A stretch of DNA of 64,000 bases from Nonlabens antarcticus. Lineage in GTDB: Bacteria > Bacteroidota > Bacteroidia > Flavobacteriales > Flavobacteriaceae. The stretch spans positions 124,001 through 188,000 of the forward strand of contig NZ_JADFCO010000063.1 of the NCBI RefSeq assembly GCF_015356755.1, given 5' to 3'. A program made the position numbers and the translations under genes. Under the pieces are notes generated by a model. The model had not been told where the DNA came from, did no database searches, and saw only the letters and a list, made by a program, of their open reading frames with translations. Shown here one piece after another: positions 8,112 to 37,226 of the stretch; position 1 is the stretch's first letter; every line of letters begins with the position of its first letter.

Positions 8112-8118
8112 AAATTGG

Positions 8119-9699
8119 TTACTTGGCTATATTCACAGCCCTAGTTTCCCTAATCACGGTAACTTTAACCTGACCTGGATAAGTCATATCAGTCTGAATT
8201 TTTTGCGAAATTTCAAAGGATAATTGGCCAGCGCGCTCGTCAGAGATCTTTTCGCTTTCTACCATCACTCTCAATTCTCTACCTGCCTGGATTGCATATG
8301 CTTTCTCTACCCCACCAAAACCGAATGCAATATCCTCAAGATCCTTCAAACGCTTGATGTAAGAATCCAGCACCTGTCTTCTAGCTCCAGGGCGCGCGCC
8401 GCTTATGGCATCACATACTTGAACAATAGGAGATAGTAAAGAGGTCATTTCTATCTCATCGTGGTGAGCTCCTATCGCGTTACAAACTTCTGGCTTTTCA
8501 CCATGCTTTTCAGCTAGCTTCATCCCTAGGATTGCGTGAGGAGTCTCATCATCATCTTCAGGAACCTTTCCTATGTCGTGAAGTAAACCGGCACGTTTAG
8601 CAAGTTTTGCATTCAAACCAAGTTCTGCTGCCATGGTTCCACACAATTTTGCTACTTCCCTACTGTGTTGTAATAGGTTTTGTCCATAAGAAGATCTGTA
8701 CTTCATTCTTCCTACCATTTTGATCAGTTCTGGATGTAATCCATGAATTCCTAGATCGATAACGGTTCTTTTCCCAACCTCCGCAATTTCCTGATCAATT
8801 TGCTTTCTTGTTTTTGCAACTACTTCTTCAATACGAGCTGGGTGAATCCTACCGTCGGTAACCAGTTTGTGCAGTGACAAACGAGCTACTTCACGTCTAA
8901 CCGAATCAAAACAACTTAAGATAATCGCATCTGGCGTGTCATCTACAATAATTTCAACACCAGTAGCTGCCTCGATGGCGCGTATGTTGCGACCCTCACG
9001 ACCGATGATTCTACCTTTGACATCATCACTTTCCAGATTAAAAACAGATACGCAGTTTTCTACGGCTTCCTCAGTTCCTATACGTTGGATCGTATTGATA
9101 ATTACCTTACGGGCTTCTTGTTGGGCCGTAAGTTTTGCCTCTTCAATGGTGTCTTGTATGATCGACATCGCTTCCGTTCGAGCTGTGTCTTTCAAGGATT
9201 CTACTAATTGTTTTTTAGCATCTTCTCCAGACATACCACTGATGACTTCCAACTGCTTGATTTGTTGAGAATGCGTTTTTTCAATTTCCTCCTGCTTCTT
9301 AGAAAAAGCTTCTCGTTTATCATCAAGATCCTTGACTTTGCTGTCTAGGCTCTGGGTCAGTCTTTTATTTTGAGCCAGTTCATTTGATACTTTAGACTCT
9401 TTATCTTTCACTCTTTTTTCTGCATCCTCCATTTTCTTCTCTCGCTGCATGATATCCTTTTCATGTGCAGACTTGAGTTCAATGAACTTCTCTTTAGCTC
9501 TGTAGGTTTTTTCAGATTTTATTTTTTCACCTTTTACTTGAGCGTCTTTAACTAGTGATTCCGCTTCTTTTCTAGCATCTGCGATGAGTTGGGAAGGTTT
9601 ACCTTTTTCAACTATTGATTTTGCAATGAAAAAGCCTATTGCTAGGCCTATAATTAGTGCGACGATCGCACTAATGATTACTATTATATTGGTCTCCAT
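8119..9699 (-). CDS. rny: Ribonuclease Y (membrane-anchored endoribonuclease)
   Basis: RNase Y starts mRNA decay at the inner face of the membrane. The start is ATG 9699 ([15 protein letters not shown]), giving 526 residues, close to the family norm. Order of parts: an N-terminal transmembrane helix (about 5-25), a long charged coiled coil (about 30-210), a KH RNA-binding domain with [21 protein letters not shown], and an HD domain with [17 protein letters not shown] and the metal-binding pair in LLHDIGKV. The frame is open nine codons further up, but that stretch runs into the probable 6S RNA terminator. It follows zapA with the 6S RNA in between. Confidence 0.96.
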
Positions 9700-31020: not shown

Positions 31021-31416
31021 ATGAAAATTATCACTTCCATTTCAATGGTTTTTCTATTCCTGTTTCAAGGAGTGAATGTACGTATGAGTTTTCATGAGTC
31101 CTTAGAAAAGGTGTCTGATTTTATTTCCCATTACCAAGTACATAAAGCGTATGACGACGATTCTTTCCTACAGTATGCCGTAGAAGAATTATTTGATCAC
31201 CCTAGCGATAGCGAGTCTCATCATAAAGAAACTCATGATAATGAGACACCCGCGCACTCCCATCAACAAATTTTTCAAGTTTCTGTATTTGTAGCACCTT
31301 CTAATAGTCTAACAATTAATTCTGTGGCTATAGAGCAAATGAAGCAATACAGCCATTATTCTTTTCAGTTTAATTCTAGGTCTCTAGAATCTCTCTTCCA
31401 GCCTCCCAGAGTATAA
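31021..31416 (+). CDS. His-rich exported protein at the head of the metal cluster
   Basis: 131 residues from ATG 31021, with a hydrophobic N-terminus (KIITSISMVFLFLFQGV) that could be a signal or anchor. The middle is rich in His, Asp and Glu (DSESHHKETHDNETPAHSHQQ), which suggests divalent metal binding outside the cytosol. No named domain is recognised. It precedes the RND pump gene in the same direction, so a metal-capture or sensing role is plausible but unproven. Confidence 0.65.
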   Translation: MKIITSISMVFLFLFQGVNVRMSFHESLEKVSDFISHYQVHKAYDDDSFLQYAVEELFDHPSDSESHHKETHDNETPAHSHQQIFQVSVFVAPSNSLTINSVAIEQMKQYSHYSFQFNSRSLESLFQPPRV

Positions 31417-31602: not shown

Positions 31603-34600
31603 ATGTTGGATAAAATCATTCAATTCTCGATCAACAACAAGCTGGTTGTCGGGATATTAACTCTGTTTCTCATAGGCTGGGGAGCTTATTCCCTAACCCA
31701 ATTGCCCATTGATGCGGTACCAGATATTACCGATAATCAGGTAATGGTAATTACAGTTTCCCCTACCCTTGCAGCACAAGAGGTGGAGCAGCTTGTTACA
31801 TTTCCAGTTGAACAGACCATGGTGAGTATTCCTGGAATAAAAGATATGCGTTCGTTTTCCCGCTTCGGGCTTTCCATAGTAACTATTGTTTTTGAAGAAA
31901 GTGTAGATTTATACTGGGCACGGCAACAAGTTCAGGAACGACTGTCATCTGCAGCTGATCAAATTCCCCAAGGCGTCGGTAAGCCTGAAATGGGACCCGT
32001 AACTACTGGATTGGGTGAAATATATCAATATGTAATTCATACCGAAAAGGGATATGAAGATAAATATGATGCAACCGAATTAAGAACCATTCAAGACTGG
32101 ATTATAAAAAGACAACTCTTAGGAACACCTGGTGTTGCAGAAGTGAGTGGTTTTGGGGGTTTAGTGAAGCAATATGAAATTGCTATAGATCCAGATAAAC
32201 TTCAAAGTTTGAATGTTACTATTGAAGAAATTTTTACCGCGCTAGAAAAAAACAATCAAAATACCGGTGGGGCTTATATTGATAAAGGTCCCAATGCCTA
32301 CTTCATAAGAAGCGAAGGCCTTGTTAACAACCTGCAAGAGCTGGAGAAAATAGCTGTGAAATTGAATAATGGGACACCTGTGCTAATTAGGGATGTTGCT
32401 AATGTACAGTTTGGTCACAGCGTACGTTATGGTGCTGCTACTCGTAATGGTGAGGGCGAGGTAGTAACGGGAATTGTAATGATGCTAAAAGGAGCCAACT
32501 CCTCCGCAGTTATCAATGATGTAAAGGATAAAATTGAACAGATTAAAGAAACTTTACCCGAAGGTGTAACTATTGAGCCCTATTTAGATAGGAAAAATTT
32601 AGTGGACCGCGCAATAGGAACAGTTACCACAAATCTTACGGAAGGTGCCTTGATCGTAATTTTTGTGTTGATCCTCTTTCTGGGTAATTTTAGGGGTGGA
32701 TTGATAGTGGCCTCGGTAATACCGCTCTCCATGCTTTTTGCCATCGCAATGATGAACCTCTTTGGAGTTTCAGGAAACCTTATGAGTTTGGGGGCTATAG
32801 ATTTTGGCCTTATTGTAGATGGGGCTGTAATTATCGTCGAGTCGATAATGTTTGGCATTCATACCAGTAAAAACAAATATGCCGGAGTTGAAAAACTGTC
32901 TTCTAAACAGATGGATATTGAAGTAAAAAGTTCTGCAGGAAAAATGATGAATTCTGCAGCCTTTGGACAAATAATCATTCTCATTGTGTATCTCCCTATT
33001 CTAGCCTTGACTGGGGTCGCTGGGAAAATGTTCCACCCTATGGCACAGACGGTAATGTTTGCTATTCTAGGAGCTTTAATTCTATCGTTGACCTATGTTC
33101 CCATGATGTCAGCACTCATCCTGAACCGTAATACGGAACACAAAAGAAATTTTTCTGATAGAATGATGGATTTCTTTCAACGTATATACAATCCTATAAT
33201 AAAAGCTGCTCTTCATGCAAAGCTCCTTGTAATTGGGGTGGCGGTGGTCTTATTTCTCATTACACTGGTCGTGTTTGTAAATATGGGGGGAGAGTTTATT
33301 CCTCAACTGGACGAAGGTGATTTTGCGGTTGAGACACGAGTGCCTGTCGGCAGCTCTATTGATCAAATGATTGATGTCTCTCAAAAAGCACAGACCATAT
33401 TATTAAATGAGTATCCAGATGAAGTATTGCAGGTGGTGAACAAGATAGGTTCAGGAGAAATTCCAACGGATCCCATGCCTATTGAAGCAGGAGATATGAT
33501 GGTTATTTTAAGCTCCAAAGATGACTGGACAAAAGCTAGTGGAAGAGAGGAACTGGCGGCAGAGATGAAAGAATCCCTATCAATTATCCCCAATGCTACT
33601 TTTAGCTTTCAACAACCCATACAAATGCGTTTCAATGAGCTTTTAACGGGTGCAAAACAGGATGTAGTTTTGAAAATTTATGGGGAAGACCTCAATACTC
33701 TTTCTGATCTCGCCGGTAATGTAGGTAGCAAAATAAAATCTGTAGAGGGGGTTGCAGATTTATATGTTGAGGAAGTCACCGGACTACCACAGATCAATAT
33801 TCAAATGAACCGGGATAAGATTTCGCAATACGGGATGAACATTGAAAGTATAAATAATACTATTGAAACTGCTTTTGCAGGTACATCTGCAGGCCTTGTG
33901 TATGAGGGGGAACGCAGGTTTGATCTTGTGGTGCGACTTGACAAAGAATTCCGAACCGATATAAGCGACGTACAGAATCTTTATATCAGCACCCCAGAGG
34001 GCAATCAAATCCCCTTAAGTGAAGTTGCTACTGTTTCATTTGAACCAGGACCTGTTCAGATTCAACGGGACAATGCCAAACGCCGGATTATTGTTGGCTT
34101 TAATGTACGTGATCGTGATGTGCAAAGTATCATTGAAGATATCAAACAGATCATGACAAAAAATGTGGAGATGCCAGCTGGTTATTACGTGACCTATGGA
34201 GGGCAATTTCAGAACCTACAAGAGGCTAATCAAAGGCTGATGATTGCTTTACCTATAGCGTTACTGCTGATTTTAATACTGCTCTATTTTGCCTTCGGAT
34301 CCATGAAACAGAGCTTGCTCATTTTTTCGGCAATTCCATTATCTGCTATTGGAGGTGTTTTTGCTCTTATCATAAGAGATATACCCTTTAGTATTTCTGC
34401 AGGTATAGGTTTTATAGCATTATTTGGTGTGGCGGTTTTGAATGGCATCGTACTGGTGGCAGAATTCAATCGACTGGACAAAGAAGGAGTAACAGATATT
34501 TATGAACGTGTCCTTCAAGGTACGCGGGTTAGACTTAGACCGGTACTGATGACTGCGACTGTAGCTGCGTTAGGTTTTCTACCCATGGCTTTATCAAATT

Positions 34601-36003
34601 CCTCAGGTGCAGAAGTACAACGTCCTCTAGCAACGGTTGTTATAGGTGGATTGATTACTGCGACTGCGTTAACGCTTATCGTTCTACCCGTTTTATACAT
34701 CTACTTTACAGATAGAAAAGCAAAGTTTAATCTCGGTAAGAAGAAAATTGGTACCACGTTAATCGTGATTGGCGGTTTGTTCTTTCCTGCCATGCAACTC
34801 CAGGCACAAGAGGTAAAATTAGTGCCAGAGCAAAAAATAACATTGCAACAAGCCATTGAAATAGCACTTCAGAACAACAACCGGATCAGGATTGCACAAT
34901 ATGAAATTGAGATGGAAGAAACTGGAAAATACGGAGCGATAAACATTCCGAGAACAGAATTTTCCTATTCGCGTGGAGAGTTTAATACGCCTACCGTAAA
35001 TGATAATCAATATGGTATTACACAACGTTTTAATTTTCCAACAGTTTATGTCAGTCAGTTCAATTTGGCGAAAGCCAAAGTTAAGAGCAAGAAGCAATTA
35101 AAAGTCATTGAAGAAAACGAACTCATCGCTGACGTAAAAATTGCCTATTTAAGAACTGTATTCTTAAAGGATAACAAGCGTTTATTAGAACGTCAAGATA
35201 GTTTGTATGGTAATCTTAGTAGGTCAAGTTTGATACGTTATGAAACTGGGGAATCCACTAAATTAGAGAGTGTTACGTCCGCCACTCAATCGATGCAGAT
35301 AAAGAACAAGCTTCAACAAAATGAAGCCGAATTGAGAATGGCCCAAAAGCGGCTTCAGGTAGTTTTAAACACTCAGGATATTATTAGTGTCGCAGATGTT
35401 GAGTTAGTTGCTCGAGAAATAGATTTAGCTATCGAGAGTCAATCTGTTGAACAAAGTCCCTTATTTATTTATTTAAAGCAAGAATTAGAGGTCAGCAAAC
35501 GGGAGACCAATGTGGCAAGAAATAAAATTTTGCCAGATATTATGTTTGGTTACAATAGCCAAACCTTTAATGGTGCTGCCAGTAACGGTATAGCAAACCA
35601 AATTTTCAGTAATAATGACCGGTTTTCATTCTTTCAAGTAGGCATAGCAATTCCCATTTTACCTGGAGGACACCGTTCCAAAATAAATGCGGCAAAAATA
35701 GAAGAGAATATAGCTTTATCTCAAATTGAGCTGAATAAAACCCAGCTACAAGGGGAACTGGAAAATTTACTTCAAGAATATTATAAGCTACAAGGAACCG
35801 TGAAATACTATCAGGATGAGGCCCTGCCACAAGCAGAGCTCATTATTGACAACTCGGAAAAAAGCTTTAAAAGTGGAGATATTTCTTATACTCAATATTT
35901 GCAAAATTTAACTTTGGCAAGCAATATTCAAACCGAATATTTGAACTCCCTATTTCAATTAAATCAATCCATCATAGTAATTGAAGCCCTACTAGGCTTG
36001 TAA
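31603..36003 (+). CDS. CzcA-type heavy-metal RND efflux pump fused to its TolC-like outer-membrane channel
   Basis: 1466 residues. Residues 1 to about 1040 are a complete RND pump: first helix NKLVVGILTLFLIGWGAY, periplasmic domains, and twelve helices. The fourth-helix signature DFGLIVDGAVIIVES is close to the DFGxxxDGAVxxVEN motif of CzcA-type pumps (Zn, Co, Cd or Ni) and unlike the Cu/Ag type. At about 1046-1069 a second signal-peptide-like segment (KKKIGTTLIVIGGLFFPAM, ending in QAQE) precedes about 400 residues of outer-membrane factor with the repeat LQQAIEIALQNNNRIRIA and long coiled-coil helices. The adaptor gene follows after 32 nt. Similar pump-channel fusions occur in other Flavobacteriia. 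Confidence 0.93.
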   Translation: MLDKIIQFSINNKLVVGILTLFLIGWGAYSLTQLPIDAVPDITDNQVMVITVSPTLAAQEVEQLVTFPVEQTMVSIPGIKDMRSFSRFGLSIVTIVFEESVDLYWARQQVQERLSSAADQIPQGVGKPEMGPVTTGLGEIYQYVIHTEKGYEDKYDATELRTIQDWIIKRQLLGTPGVAEVSGFGGLVKQYEIAIDPDKLQSLNVTIEEIFTALEKNNQNTGGAYIDKGPNAYFIRSEGLVNNLQELEKIAVKLNNGTPVLIRDVANVQFGHSVRYGAATRNGEGEVVTGIVMMLKGANSSAVINDVKDKIEQIKETLPEGVTIEPYLDRKNLVDRAIGTVTTNLTEGALIVIFVLILFLGNFRGGLIVASVIPLSMLFAIAMMNLFGVSGNLMSLGAIDFGLIVDGAVIIVESIMFGIHTSKNKYAGVEKLSSKQMDIEVKSSAGKMMNSAAFGQIIILIVYLPILALTGVAGKMFHPMAQTVMFAILGALILSLTYVPMMSALILNRNTEHKRNFSDRMMDFFQRIYNPIIKAALHAKLLVIGVAVVLFLITLVVFVNMGGEFIPQLDEGDFAVETRVPVGSSIDQMIDVSQKAQTILLNEYPDEVLQVVNKIGSGEIPTDPMPIEAGDMMVILSSKDDWTKASGREELAAEMKESLSIIPNATFSFQQPIQMRFNELLTGAKQDVVLKIYGEDLNTLSDLAGNVGSKIKSVEGVADLYVEEVTGLPQINIQMNRDKISQYGMNIESINNTIETAFAGTSAGLVYEGERRFDLVVRLDKEFRTDISDVQNLYISTPEGNQIPLSEVATVSFEPGPVQIQRDNAKRRIIVGFNVRDRDVQSIIEDIKQIMTKNVEMPAGYYVTYGGQFQNLQEANQRLMIALPIALLLILILLYFAFGSMKQSLLIFSAIPLSAIGGVFALIIRDIPFSISAGIGFIALFGVAVLNGIVLVAEFNRLDKEGVTDIYERVLQGTRVRLRPVLMTATVAALGFLPMALSNSSGAEVQRPLATVVIGGLITATALTLIVLPVLYIYFTDRKAKFNLGKKKIGTTLIVIGGLFFPAMQLQAQEVKLVPEQKITLQQAIEIALQNNNRIRIAQYEIEMEETGKYGAINIPRTEFSYSRGEFNTPTVNDNQYGITQRFNFPTVYVSQFNLAKAKVKSKKQLKVIEENELIADVKIAYLRTVFLKDNKRLLERQDSLYGNLSRSSLIRYETGESTKLESVTSATQSMQIKNKLQQNEAELRMAQKRLQVVLNTQDIISVADVELVAREIDLAIESQSVEQSPLFIYLKQELEVSKRETNVARNKILPDIMFGYNSQTFNGAASNGIANQIFSNNDRFSFFQVGIAIPILPGGHRSKINAAKIEENIALSQIELNKTQLQGELENLLQEYYKLQGTVKYYQDEALPQAELIIDNSEKSFKSGDISYTQYLQNLTLASNIQTEYLNSLFQLNQSIIVIEALLGL

Positions 36004-36035: not shown

Positions 36036-37226
36036 ATGAAAATCAAATTTAATAACACGCTACTTATTTTGTCCGCTCTATTTATGGTGGCTTGTGGCAA
36101 CAAGGAGTCAGACAGCATAGAAACTACCGAAGAATCTTCAATGCAAGATGAAAAACCAAGTACAGATGGAGTGAAACAAATAACATTTACAAAAGACCAG
36201 TACAATCTTGCCGAAATTGAGACTGGAGTGATTGAGATGAGAAACCTCAGTAATATTATTAAACTCAATGGAGTCATTGATGTAGAGCCTGAAAGTATGG
36301 CCTCTGTCTCTGCACCTTTAGGAGGGTACTTAAAAACTGCGGGAAGATTGCCTGGTGAAGCCATTAAAAAAGGTCAGGTATTAGCAACCATCGAAAATCC
36401 TGAATTTATCACCATCCAACAGGGATATTTGGAGAGCTTGAGTAAACTTCAATTTCTTGACGAGGAATTCAACCGCCAAAAAAAGTTGAGAGAGGAGGAT
36501 ATAAATTCTGCAAAAATATTTCAACAGGTATCTTCTGATTATAGGATAACCCAGGGAAGAGTGAAAGCATATGAGCAACAACTTGCACTTGCGGGAATAA
36601 GTAGCAATTCTGTTAAAAATGGCAACATTACACGGACGGCAAACCTTTATGCGCCTATTTCGGGTTTTATAAAAGAGAGCAACGTTAATATTGGAGATTA
36701 CGTATCGCCACAAGATGTTCTATTTGAAATCGTCGATCTAAACGATATTCATTTGGCATTAAATGCTTTTGAAAAAGATTTGGCAAATATAAAAATTGAT
36801 CAAACCGTTAAGTTTTCGCTTTCCAATGATAATATGTTCAACCGGACTGCCGCCGTTTTTTTAATAGGAAAAGCTACTGGTAATGACCGTATGACACCTG
36901 TTCATTGTCACATAAATGAAGATGACCAGCAAGGTCTTTTGCCTGGTATGTACGTCAAAGCTTGGTTAGAAAGCGGTACCAATAAACAAAGCGCCATCCC
37001 TTCAGAGGCTATCGTTCAATATCAAGGCAAAGACTATGTTATTTTACAATCGAAAGAAGTGGAGTCTGGCTACACCTTTAAATTAGAACAGGTGAAAAAA
37101 GGAATTGAGCAAGAGGGTTATACAGCTATAACTTTCGCGGAAGGTGCCGATGCTCAAAATTTTGAGCTTGTAACTAAGAATGCCTATTCCATATTGTCTG
37201 CATTGAGGAATTCTGAAGAAGAATAA
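36036..37226 (+). CDS. Periplasmic adaptor (membrane fusion protein) of the metal efflux system, CzcB/CusB type
   Basis: A 396-residue lipoprotein (signal KIKFNNTLLILSALFMVAC) that should bridge the RND pump and the outer-membrane channel. The barrel-sandwich/lipoyl region begins at GVIDVEPESMASVSAPLGG and resumes with NLYAPISGFIKESNVNIGDYV around a helical hairpin (about residues 125-190). A beta-barrel region follows (IKIDQTVKFSLSND). A membrane-proximal domain carries HCHINEDDQQGLLPGMYVKAWL. That HCH triad could add metal contacts; it is seen in the sequence but its role is not tested. Confidence 0.9.
   Translation: MKIKFNNTLLILSALFMVACGNKESDSIETTEESSMQDEKPSTDGVKQITFTKDQYNLAEIETGVIEMRNLSNIIKLNGVIDVEPESMASVSAPLGGYLKTAGRLPGEAIKKGQVLATIENPEFITIQQGYLESLSKLQFLDEEFNRQKKLREEDINSAKIFQQVSSDYRITQGRVKAYEQQLALAGISSNSVKNGNITRTANLYAPISGFIKESNVNIGDYVSPQDVLFEIVDLNDIHLALNAFEKDLANIKIDQTVKFSLSNDNMFNRTAAVFLIGKATGNDRMTPVHCHINEDDQQGLLPGMYVKAWLESGTNKQSAIPSEAIVQYQGKDYVILQSKEVESGYTFKLEQVKKGIEQEGYTAITFAEGADAQNFELVTKNAYSILSALRNSEEE

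What the first reader, a model, noticed from the sequence alone, without database searches (positions are those of the whole stretch)
31603..36003. RND pump fused to its outer-membrane channel with an embedded signal peptide
The pump part ends near residue 1040. Residues 1046-1069 then repeat the layout of a Sec signal peptide (KKK, a hydrophobic core, and QAQE) before the TolC-like part. An inner-membrane pump and an outer-membrane barrel cannot easily stay one chain unless the linker spans the periplasm or the chain is cut. The retained signal suggests cleavage by signal peptidase after co-translation, giving a fixed 1:1 supply of both parts.
Basis: partly seen in the sequence, partly recalled or inferred. 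Interest (0 to 1): 0.6.

Follow-up and report, generated by a model that had tools for sequence, protein, structure and literature searches.

The report
Metal pump fused to its channel
One bacterial gene encodes both an inner-membrane metal pump and its outer-membrane exit channel, joined by a built-in export signal that the cell very probably cuts, and the same arrangement is widespread among related bacteria.

Summary
Window 31603-36003 (+) is one 1466-aa frame: a CzcA/ZneA-like RND metal pump (residues 1-1041), a Sec-type signal peptide (about 1046-1068) and a complete TolC/CusC-type channel (1069-1466). The pump has 12 helices, so its C-terminus is cytoplasmic and the channel needs a new export signal. 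I tested cleavage against the Bacteroidetes "Q-rule" (signal peptidase I exposes Gln). Of 76 representative fused proteins (window included), 74 carry [Ala/Gly/Ser]-Gln after the embedded core. The same test gave 0-12 of 74-76 for the twelve true helices, and a mean of 27.5 (maximum 40) in shuffles. Of nine split relatives, eight have the channel as the next gene, with its own Q-rule signal peptide where the fused form has the embedded one; a plasmid record adds another, and in four of these the genes overlap. The window has no start codon between pump and core, so internal initiation is unlikely. The predicted mature channel starts 10 residues before TolC's residue 1, leaving no tether. Best explanation: a polyprotein cut by signal peptidase I, the spent signal staying on the pump as a thirteenth helix. 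Cleavage is untested. The fusion is annotated in databases; its processing was not found in the papers searched.

The parts
31603..34725 (+). RND pump part, residues 1-1041, CzcA/ZneA-like heavy-metal efflux family, hydropathy peaks grouped by hand into 12 helices (TM1-TM12)
   Evidence: TIGR00914 1192.9 bits; PF00873 residues 5-1035; hydropathy; closest solved chain ZneA 4k0e
34738..34806 (+). Embedded Sec-type signal peptide, residues 1046-1068 (KKK n-region, core IGTTLIVIGGLFFPAM, then QLQA)
   Evidence: core 16 aa; alignment of 83 fused sequences, window included
34804..34809 (+). Predicted signal peptidase I site Ala1068|Gln1069 (Q-rule)
   Evidence: [AGS]Q in 74 of 76 representatives; Q-rule from PMC5837995 section 16
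34807..36000 (+). TolC/CusC-type outer-membrane channel, residues 1069-1466 (398 aa)
   Evidence: PF02321; AlphaFold2 mean pLDDT 95.4; CusC 3pik Z 27.8, TolC 1ek9 Z 26.5
36036..37226 (+). Separate periplasmic adaptor, probably of the same operon (CusB/CzcB type, lipoprotein-like N-terminus LFMVAC)
   Evidence: TIGR01730 106 bits, cut-off 94.9; PF16576 103 bits; sequence
31021..31416 (+). Small His-rich protein upstream, possible metal-binding partner (frame listed from 30961; in-frame ATG at 31021)
   Evidence: no Pfam match up to E = 1; association by position only

Best explanation
The gene encodes a bacterial polyprotein. The ribosome makes the CzcA-like pump, which threads 12 helices into the inner membrane and leaves its C-terminus in the cytoplasm. 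The Lys-rich stretch plus the core at 1046-1068 then acts as an internal signal peptide and restarts export. Signal peptidase I cuts after Ala1068 and releases the 398-residue channel with an N-terminal Gln (probably cyclised to pyroglutamate). The freed channel goes to the outer membrane as a TolC-type trimer and joins the pump and the separately encoded adaptor (36036-37226). The cut signal most likely stays on the pump as a thirteenth helix with its end in the periplasm. Shown here: the architecture, the conserved site, the split relatives, and the very short stretch between site and channel fold. Inferred: cleavage, pyroglutamate, helix retention, co-translational coupling, divalent-metal substrate.
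For: (1) Site conservation: [AGS]Q after the embedded core in 74 of 76 representative fused proteins; the same test gives 4/74 for TM1 and 0, 3, 0, 0, 3 of 76 for the other in-to-out helices TM3, 5, 7, 9, 11, and at most 12/76 (TM4) over all twelve; shuffles mean 27.5, maximum 40 of 1000. Position -1 is Ala in 69 of 74 (the script preferred Ala where several sites qualified). The literature mean for predicted N-terminal signal peptides in Bacteroidetes is 71% Gln (PMC5837995 section 16). (2) Natural splits: of nine split loci (L092 and the eight same-class loci L166-L173), eight (all but L167) have the channel as the next gene with its own signal peptide ending [AGS]|Q; L092 and L166 overlap stop and start as ATGA, and L173 overlaps in another frame. 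The plasmid record of Hymenobacter sp. BRD128 is a further overlapping split ending SYG|Q. In L168-L172 the pump is 84-86% identical to that of fused L124 and the channel 78-79% to that of fused L121. (3) Topology: 12 helices put the C-terminus inside. (4) No room for a tether: the channel fold begins at mature residue 9, and model residue 11 aligns with residue 1 of TolC 1ek9. (5) No ATG/GTG/TTG in frame between pump end and core start in the window (read; ATG). (6) A signal peptidase I family frame and a glutaminyl cyclase family frame (PF05096) occur in the genome.
Against: No fragment has been seen. Hydrophobicity of the segment overlaps with true helices (59% of the 76 exceed a 19-residue mean of 1.6). 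Chance alone gives about 27 of 76 because these stretches are rich in Ala and Gln. Two of 76 lack the site as defined (L129 has TQ; L165 has SAEAC). The site window was chosen after I had seen the alignment, though the controls use the same window; the helix controls sometimes include a neighbouring helix, which lengthens their cores. Many representatives are related by descent, so 76 rows are not 76 independent events.
Confidence: 0.86

Rival explanations
1. Uncut tethered chain: the segment is an ordinary thirteenth helix and the channel stays attached to the pump.
For: Many embedded segments are hydrophobic enough to be called helices (59% over 1.6). The reading frame runs through the junction in 139 frames.
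Against: It does not explain the conserved [AGS]|Q (74 of 76) or the split forms. Only about 8-10 residues lie between the site and the channel fold, whereas the pump's periplasmic domain plus adaptor hold the channel more than 100 angstrom from the inner membrane (recalled from tripartite pump structures).
Confidence: 0.06
2. Internal initiation: ribosomes also start inside the junction, so the channel is made partly or wholly as a separate product with an N-terminal signal peptide.
For: 28 of 76 representatives have an in-frame ATG between pump end and core, several followed by Lys as in a typical start; 42 of 76 have ATG, GTG or TTG. Split relatives use such starts.
Against: 28 of 76 is close to what random stretches of equal length from the same proteins give (mean 26, range 15-38; these include Met-rich helices, so a local excess is not excluded). 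34 of 76 have none of the three codons, and neither has the window. The full frame is translated anyway.
Confidence: 0.05
3. Cleavage by a different enzyme (lipoprotein signal peptidase or a periplasmic protease).
For: Many RND channel proteins are lipoproteins (CusC, OprM; recalled). L165 has a Cys near the site.
Against: No Cys near the window site; -1 is Ala in 69 of 74 with Gln at +1, the signal peptidase I pattern of this phylum.
Confidence: 0.03

Closest known systems
CzcA/ZneA-type heavy-metal RND pump (TIGR00914; ZneA 4k0e, CusA 3k07)
   Same: Full-length pump homology, 1192.9 bits; ZneA is the best solved match (E 9.6e-203), with the AIDFGxIVDGA stretch of TM4 shared with ZneA
   Different: Carries a signal peptide and a complete channel at its C-terminus; the three Met residues that I recall as the CusA triad align with Glu, Ala and Glu, so copper/silver is unlikely
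TolC/CusC/OprM outer-membrane factor
   Same: Whole fold: CusC 3pik Z 27.8 over 377 residues, TolC 1ek9 Z 26.5
   Different: Low sequence identity, 15% to CusC 3pik and 13% to TolC 1ek9; not an independent gene; no lipid-anchor Cys in the window copy
FbcH cytochrome b/c1 polyprotein of Bradyrhizobium (recalled; no paper on it found)
   Same: Inner-membrane protein and exported protein in one frame, separated by an internal signal peptide cut by signal peptidase
   Different: Both FbcH products stay at the inner membrane; here one product must leave for the outer membrane. FbcH cleavage is experimental (recalled), here it is predicted
Bacteroidetes Q-rule substrates (PMC5837995)
   Same: Ala|Gln at the cut site
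   Different: Here the signal is internal; the passages of that paper found with 'internal' and 'fusion' describe no internal signal peptide

Membership tests
CusA/CzcA heavy-metal RND (TIGR00914) | Score over the curated cut-off across the whole pump | tested here: met
   1192.9 against 701.45 bits, residues 1-1041
CusA/CzcA heavy-metal RND (TIGR00914) | Twelve transmembrane helices | tested here: met
   19-residue hydropathy peaks, grouped by hand, give 12 helices
CusA branch (Cu(I)/Ag(I)) | Met triad (residue identity recalled) | tested here: not met
   Aligned residues are Glu, Ala, Glu; so CzcA/ZneA branch rather than CusA
CusA/CzcA heavy-metal RND (TIGR00914) | Metal export activity | not testable with these tools
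   Needs an assay
Outer-membrane factor (TolC/OEP) | PF02321 over cut-off | tested here: met
   115 against 22 bits, two stretches
Outer-membrane factor (TolC/OEP) | TolC fold with barrel hairpins and long helices | tested here: met
   pLDDT 95.4; Z 26-28 to CusC, OprN, TolC
NCBIfam type_I_sec_TolC subfamily (TIGR01844) | Curated cut-off | tested here: not met
   41.2 against 225.15 bits; not filed there
Signal peptidase I substrate, Q-rule type | Basic n-region, short core, small residue at -1, Gln at +1 | tested here: met
   KKK, 16-aa core, QLQA|QE
Signal peptidase I substrate, Q-rule type | Observed cut and pyroglutamate | not testable with these tools
   No proteomics available
Signal-peptidase-processed bacterial polyprotein (FbcH kind, recalled) | One frame, internal signal peptide between two proteins that are separate genes elsewhere | tested here: met
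Signal-peptidase-processed bacterial polyprotein (FbcH kind, recalled) | Cleavage demonstrated | not testable with these tools
   Needs blot or mass spectrometry

The most novel reading that the evidence does not exclude
A large part of this group makes an outer-membrane channel as the tail of an inner-membrane protein. The channel is therefore exported co-translationally through the pump's insertion route rather than by the usual post-translational route, and every processed pump carries the spent signal as a thirteenth helix with a periplasmic end, next to the exit channel it was born with. The splits suggest that the arrangement is reversible in evolution because cutting makes fused and split genes give nearly the same two proteins.
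Probability: 0.5. Interest if true: 0.68.

Novelty: new variant of a known kind. Interest (0 to 1): 0.55.

Why it matters
If true, it is a widespread bacterial polyprotein whose two products end in different membranes. It would give a natural system to ask whether an outer-membrane protein can be exported co-translationally, whether pump and channel made from one chain assemble with each other, and how signal peptidase I reads a signal that follows twelve helices. It also means that database entries named only "CusA/CzcA transporter" can hide a channel protein (32 of the 39 plasmid places seen with at least 80% cover carry that kind of single-gene name). The Q-rule serves here as a comparative test of internal cleavage.

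Tried and rejected
Tethered single chain, internal initiation and lipoprotein processing were considered and rejected as main explanations (see rivals). Hydropathy alone was tried as a way to tell signal from helix and does not separate them. An excess of Met in the junction was tested and not seen (28 of 76 against a mean of 26 in random stretches). A fusion limited to this genome was rejected: 139 fused frames. A fusion gained many times was not supported: on two pump trees (76 fused rows with 24 and with 23 split rows) the label needs 6 changes, and the split rows L092 and L166-L173 sit among fused ones in the drawn tree, which I read as few fusions and several later splits; the root is not inferred, long branches were flagged, and the starred branches force 6 and 5 changes. 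Copper/silver specificity was rejected on the Met alignment. The animal-type glutaminyl cyclase question stayed open: PF04389, a broad peptidase family, gives 7 matches that I did not sort. In plasmid records, 39 of the 43 with at least 80% cover were visible and all bear Bacteroidota genus names (names judged from memory; one checked); four were not listed; the 20 visible rows from other groups stop at residue 1032-1072. A search of phage records gave one unannotated record and nothing useful.

Papers: no discussion of the processing, or of a pump-channel fusion, was seen in what I looked at through. I saw search listings with abstract openings; word-search passages of PMC4827864, PMC8277102 (first 300,000 characters held), PMC11960050 and PMC10434189; a word search of PMC10653852 without any occurrence; and abstract, passages and sections 16 and 26 of PMC5837995. 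Most subscription papers are not in that library. FbcH is recalled; searches found no paper on it.

Rows dropped: L154, taken as fused from its 1777-residue frame, held no channel and was not counted; 63 of 139 fused frames were dropped as at least 80% identical to a kept one; L103 and L141 were left out of the structure alignment, 74 of 76 used; L188 was left out of the second tree. favours fused relatives because its query was the fused protein (79 of 80 loci fused), so it says nothing about how common the split is. Among the same-class rows shown, my hand count is 44 long and 8 short frames besides the window's own genome; that call did not list all matches.
Full report
OBSERVATION. The frame at 31603-36003 (+) is 1466 codons long with an ATG start. 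Its first 1041 residues match the CusA/CzcA heavy-metal RND family far above the cut-off (1192.9 against 701.45 bits). Its end matches the outer-membrane efflux family in two stretches (115 bits). Residues 1046-1048 are KKK, the maximal hydrophobic segment is 16 residues (IGTTLIVIGGLFFPAM, 1049-1064), and QLQAQE follows with Ala1068 and Gln1069 at nt 34804-34809.

NEIGHBOURS. A CusB/CzcB-type adaptor with a lipoprotein-like start follows at 36036-37226. A small His-rich protein precedes the gene (in-frame ATG at 31021) and has no Pfam match. A HupE/UreJ-type membrane protein follows the adaptor (PF13795, 185 bits). The genome has three more fused frames and several unfused pumps and channels.

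WHAT THE HALVES ARE. The best solved pump match is ZneA (4k0e), then CusA. The TM4 stretch AIDFGLIVDGA resembles ZneA, and the three Met residues I recall as the CusA triad align with Glu, Ala and Glu, so a divalent-metal pump is more likely than a copper pump; the substrate was not tested. It matches CusC 3pik (Z 27.8, 377 residues, rmsd 4.9), OprN, TolC and others.

TOPOLOGY. The 19-residue hydropathy profile, grouped by hand, gives 12 helices in the pump, so the C-terminus is cytoplasmic; the embedded segment stays below 1.5 in the window (1.43). Something must export the channel, and the segment 1046-1068 is the obvious candidate.

TEST 1, THE SITE. Bacteroidetes signal peptidase I substrates usually have Gln at +1 (mean 71% of predicted substrates over species; PMC5837995 section 16). 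I collected 139 fused frames: 4 from this genome, 79 of the 80 loci (4 of these lacked a full frame because of contig ends), 44 same-class loci and 12 loci that the tool labels same phylum but not same class. Clustering at 80% identity left 76, window included. An [AGS]Q pair lies in the site window after the embedded core in 74 of 76; L129 (TQ) and L165 (SAEAC) are the exceptions. The identical test on the twelve true helices of the same proteins gives 4/74 for TM1 and 0, 0, 12, 3, 3, 0, 0, 0, 2, 3, 2 of 76 for TM2-TM12. Shuffling the residues from the seventh of the core onward gives a mean of 27.5 and a maximum of 40 in 1000 rounds, so chance is not small but is far below 74. Position -1 is Ala in 69 of 74, the script preferring Ala where several sites qualified. 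The median core is 14.5 residues against 24-46 for the helices by the same measure, which sometimes takes in a neighbouring helix. Against my reading, peak hydropathy overlaps: 59% of the embedded segments exceed 1.6, and TM11 is no more hydrophobic. The site window was set after I had seen the alignment.

TEST 2, NATURAL SPLITS. Of nine split loci (L092, a named Chryseosolibacter record, and the eight same-class loci L166-L173), eight have the channel as the next gene, and in all eight it starts with a signal peptide ending [AGS]|Q; L167 has no channel in the fetched stretch. In L092 and L166 the pump's stop and the channel's start overlap as ATGA, and in L173 the two frames overlap. A named plasmid record (Hymenobacter sp. 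BRD128) has annotated overlapping genes whose channel starts with a signal peptide ending SYG|Q. In L168-L172 the pump is 84-86% identical to that of fused L124 and the channel 78-79% to that of fused L121, so the split there is fairly recent. The embedded segment therefore has direct counterparts that are ordinary N-terminal signal peptides. In the split forms the pump ends soon after TM12, so the spent signal is not needed for pumping as such.

TEST 3, TETHER. The first structural element of the channel is at mature residue 9, and model residue 11 aligns with residue 1 of TolC 1ek9. The predicted cut thus puts the mature N-terminus about where TolC's own lies. Eight to ten residues cannot bridge from the inner membrane to the channel body in a tripartite pump (dimensions recalled).

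TEST 4, INTERNAL STARTS. The window has no ATG, GTG or TTG in frame between pump end and core start. Over the 76, 28 have ATG and 42 any of the three; random stretches of equal length give a mean of 26 with Met, range 15-38. Internal initiation is possible in some relatives, not evidently here.

MACHINERY. The genome has a signal peptidase I family frame (PF10502) and a glutaminyl cyclase family frame (PF05096, E 1.4e-85; that this is the plant-type family is recalled). Whether the latter is exported was not examined.

DISTRIBUTION AND HISTORY. In 247 sampled genomes of the phylum, 184 have a TIGR00914 match at E up to 1e-200. Among the same-class rows listed there, outside this genome, I counted 44 long and 8 short frames by hand; all 44 long ones held a channel, and 12 of the 13 long ones I fetched from the rest of the phylum did. 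On two pump trees the fused/split label needs six changes, and in the drawn one the splits L092 and L166-L173 lie among fused rows. I read this as an old fusion with several later splits; the root is not inferred. In plasmid records, 39 of 43 with at least 80% cover were visible; all are Bacteroidota by genus name, and 32 of the 39 are annotated as one CusA/CzcA gene. So the fusion is in databases; no discussion of its processing was seen through.

MECHANISM AND STATUS. The most likely path is: pump inserted, internal signal engaged, signal peptidase I cut after Ala1068, channel released with (pyro)Gln1069, outer-membrane assembly, joining with pump and adaptor. Architecture, conservation and splits are shown by comparison; the cut, pyroglutamate, retained thirteenth helix, co-translational export and stoichiometric benefit are inferred. 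The closest mechanistic precedent, the FbcH polyprotein, is recalled. This works like FbcH; membership in processed polyproteins awaits a demonstrated cut.

Noticed in passing
L168, L170, L171 (channel start, about 8118-8260 in gene orientation): In this split clade the channel's N-terminal region contains copies of a TTTGCGAACTTTGCG-like repeat; the core motif was found 1-3 times in L168-L172 and not in fused L114, L121, L124, L128, though those fetched stretches are less than half as long. A repeat insertion may have caused the split.
   Followed up: partly
L165, junction (G168): Fused protein without Gln after the core, with SAEAC instead; either a non-Q site or a different processing.
   Followed up: no
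L153 and L160: Fused forms from other classes with more than 40 residues between the end of the pump match and the signal core, still with an A|Q site.
   Followed up: no
L036: A contig labelled Ignavibacteriae carries a fused gene 80% identical to the window's; horizontal transfer or mis-binning.
   Followed up: no
window 31021-31416: His-rich small protein (HSDSESHHKETHDNETPAHSHQ) directly upstream of the pump, no Pfam match.
   Followed up: no
G000:C62:103941 and G000:C63:61903 (outside the window): Two further RND frames of 1270 and 1277 aa whose ACR_tran match breaks into pieces, each with a separate channel gene close downstream.
   Followed up: no
L089 and L090: Contigs of two different metagenome bins share the same junction, GMGQVSVAQQ, with two possible Q sites; only L089 was kept as representative.
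   Followed up: no
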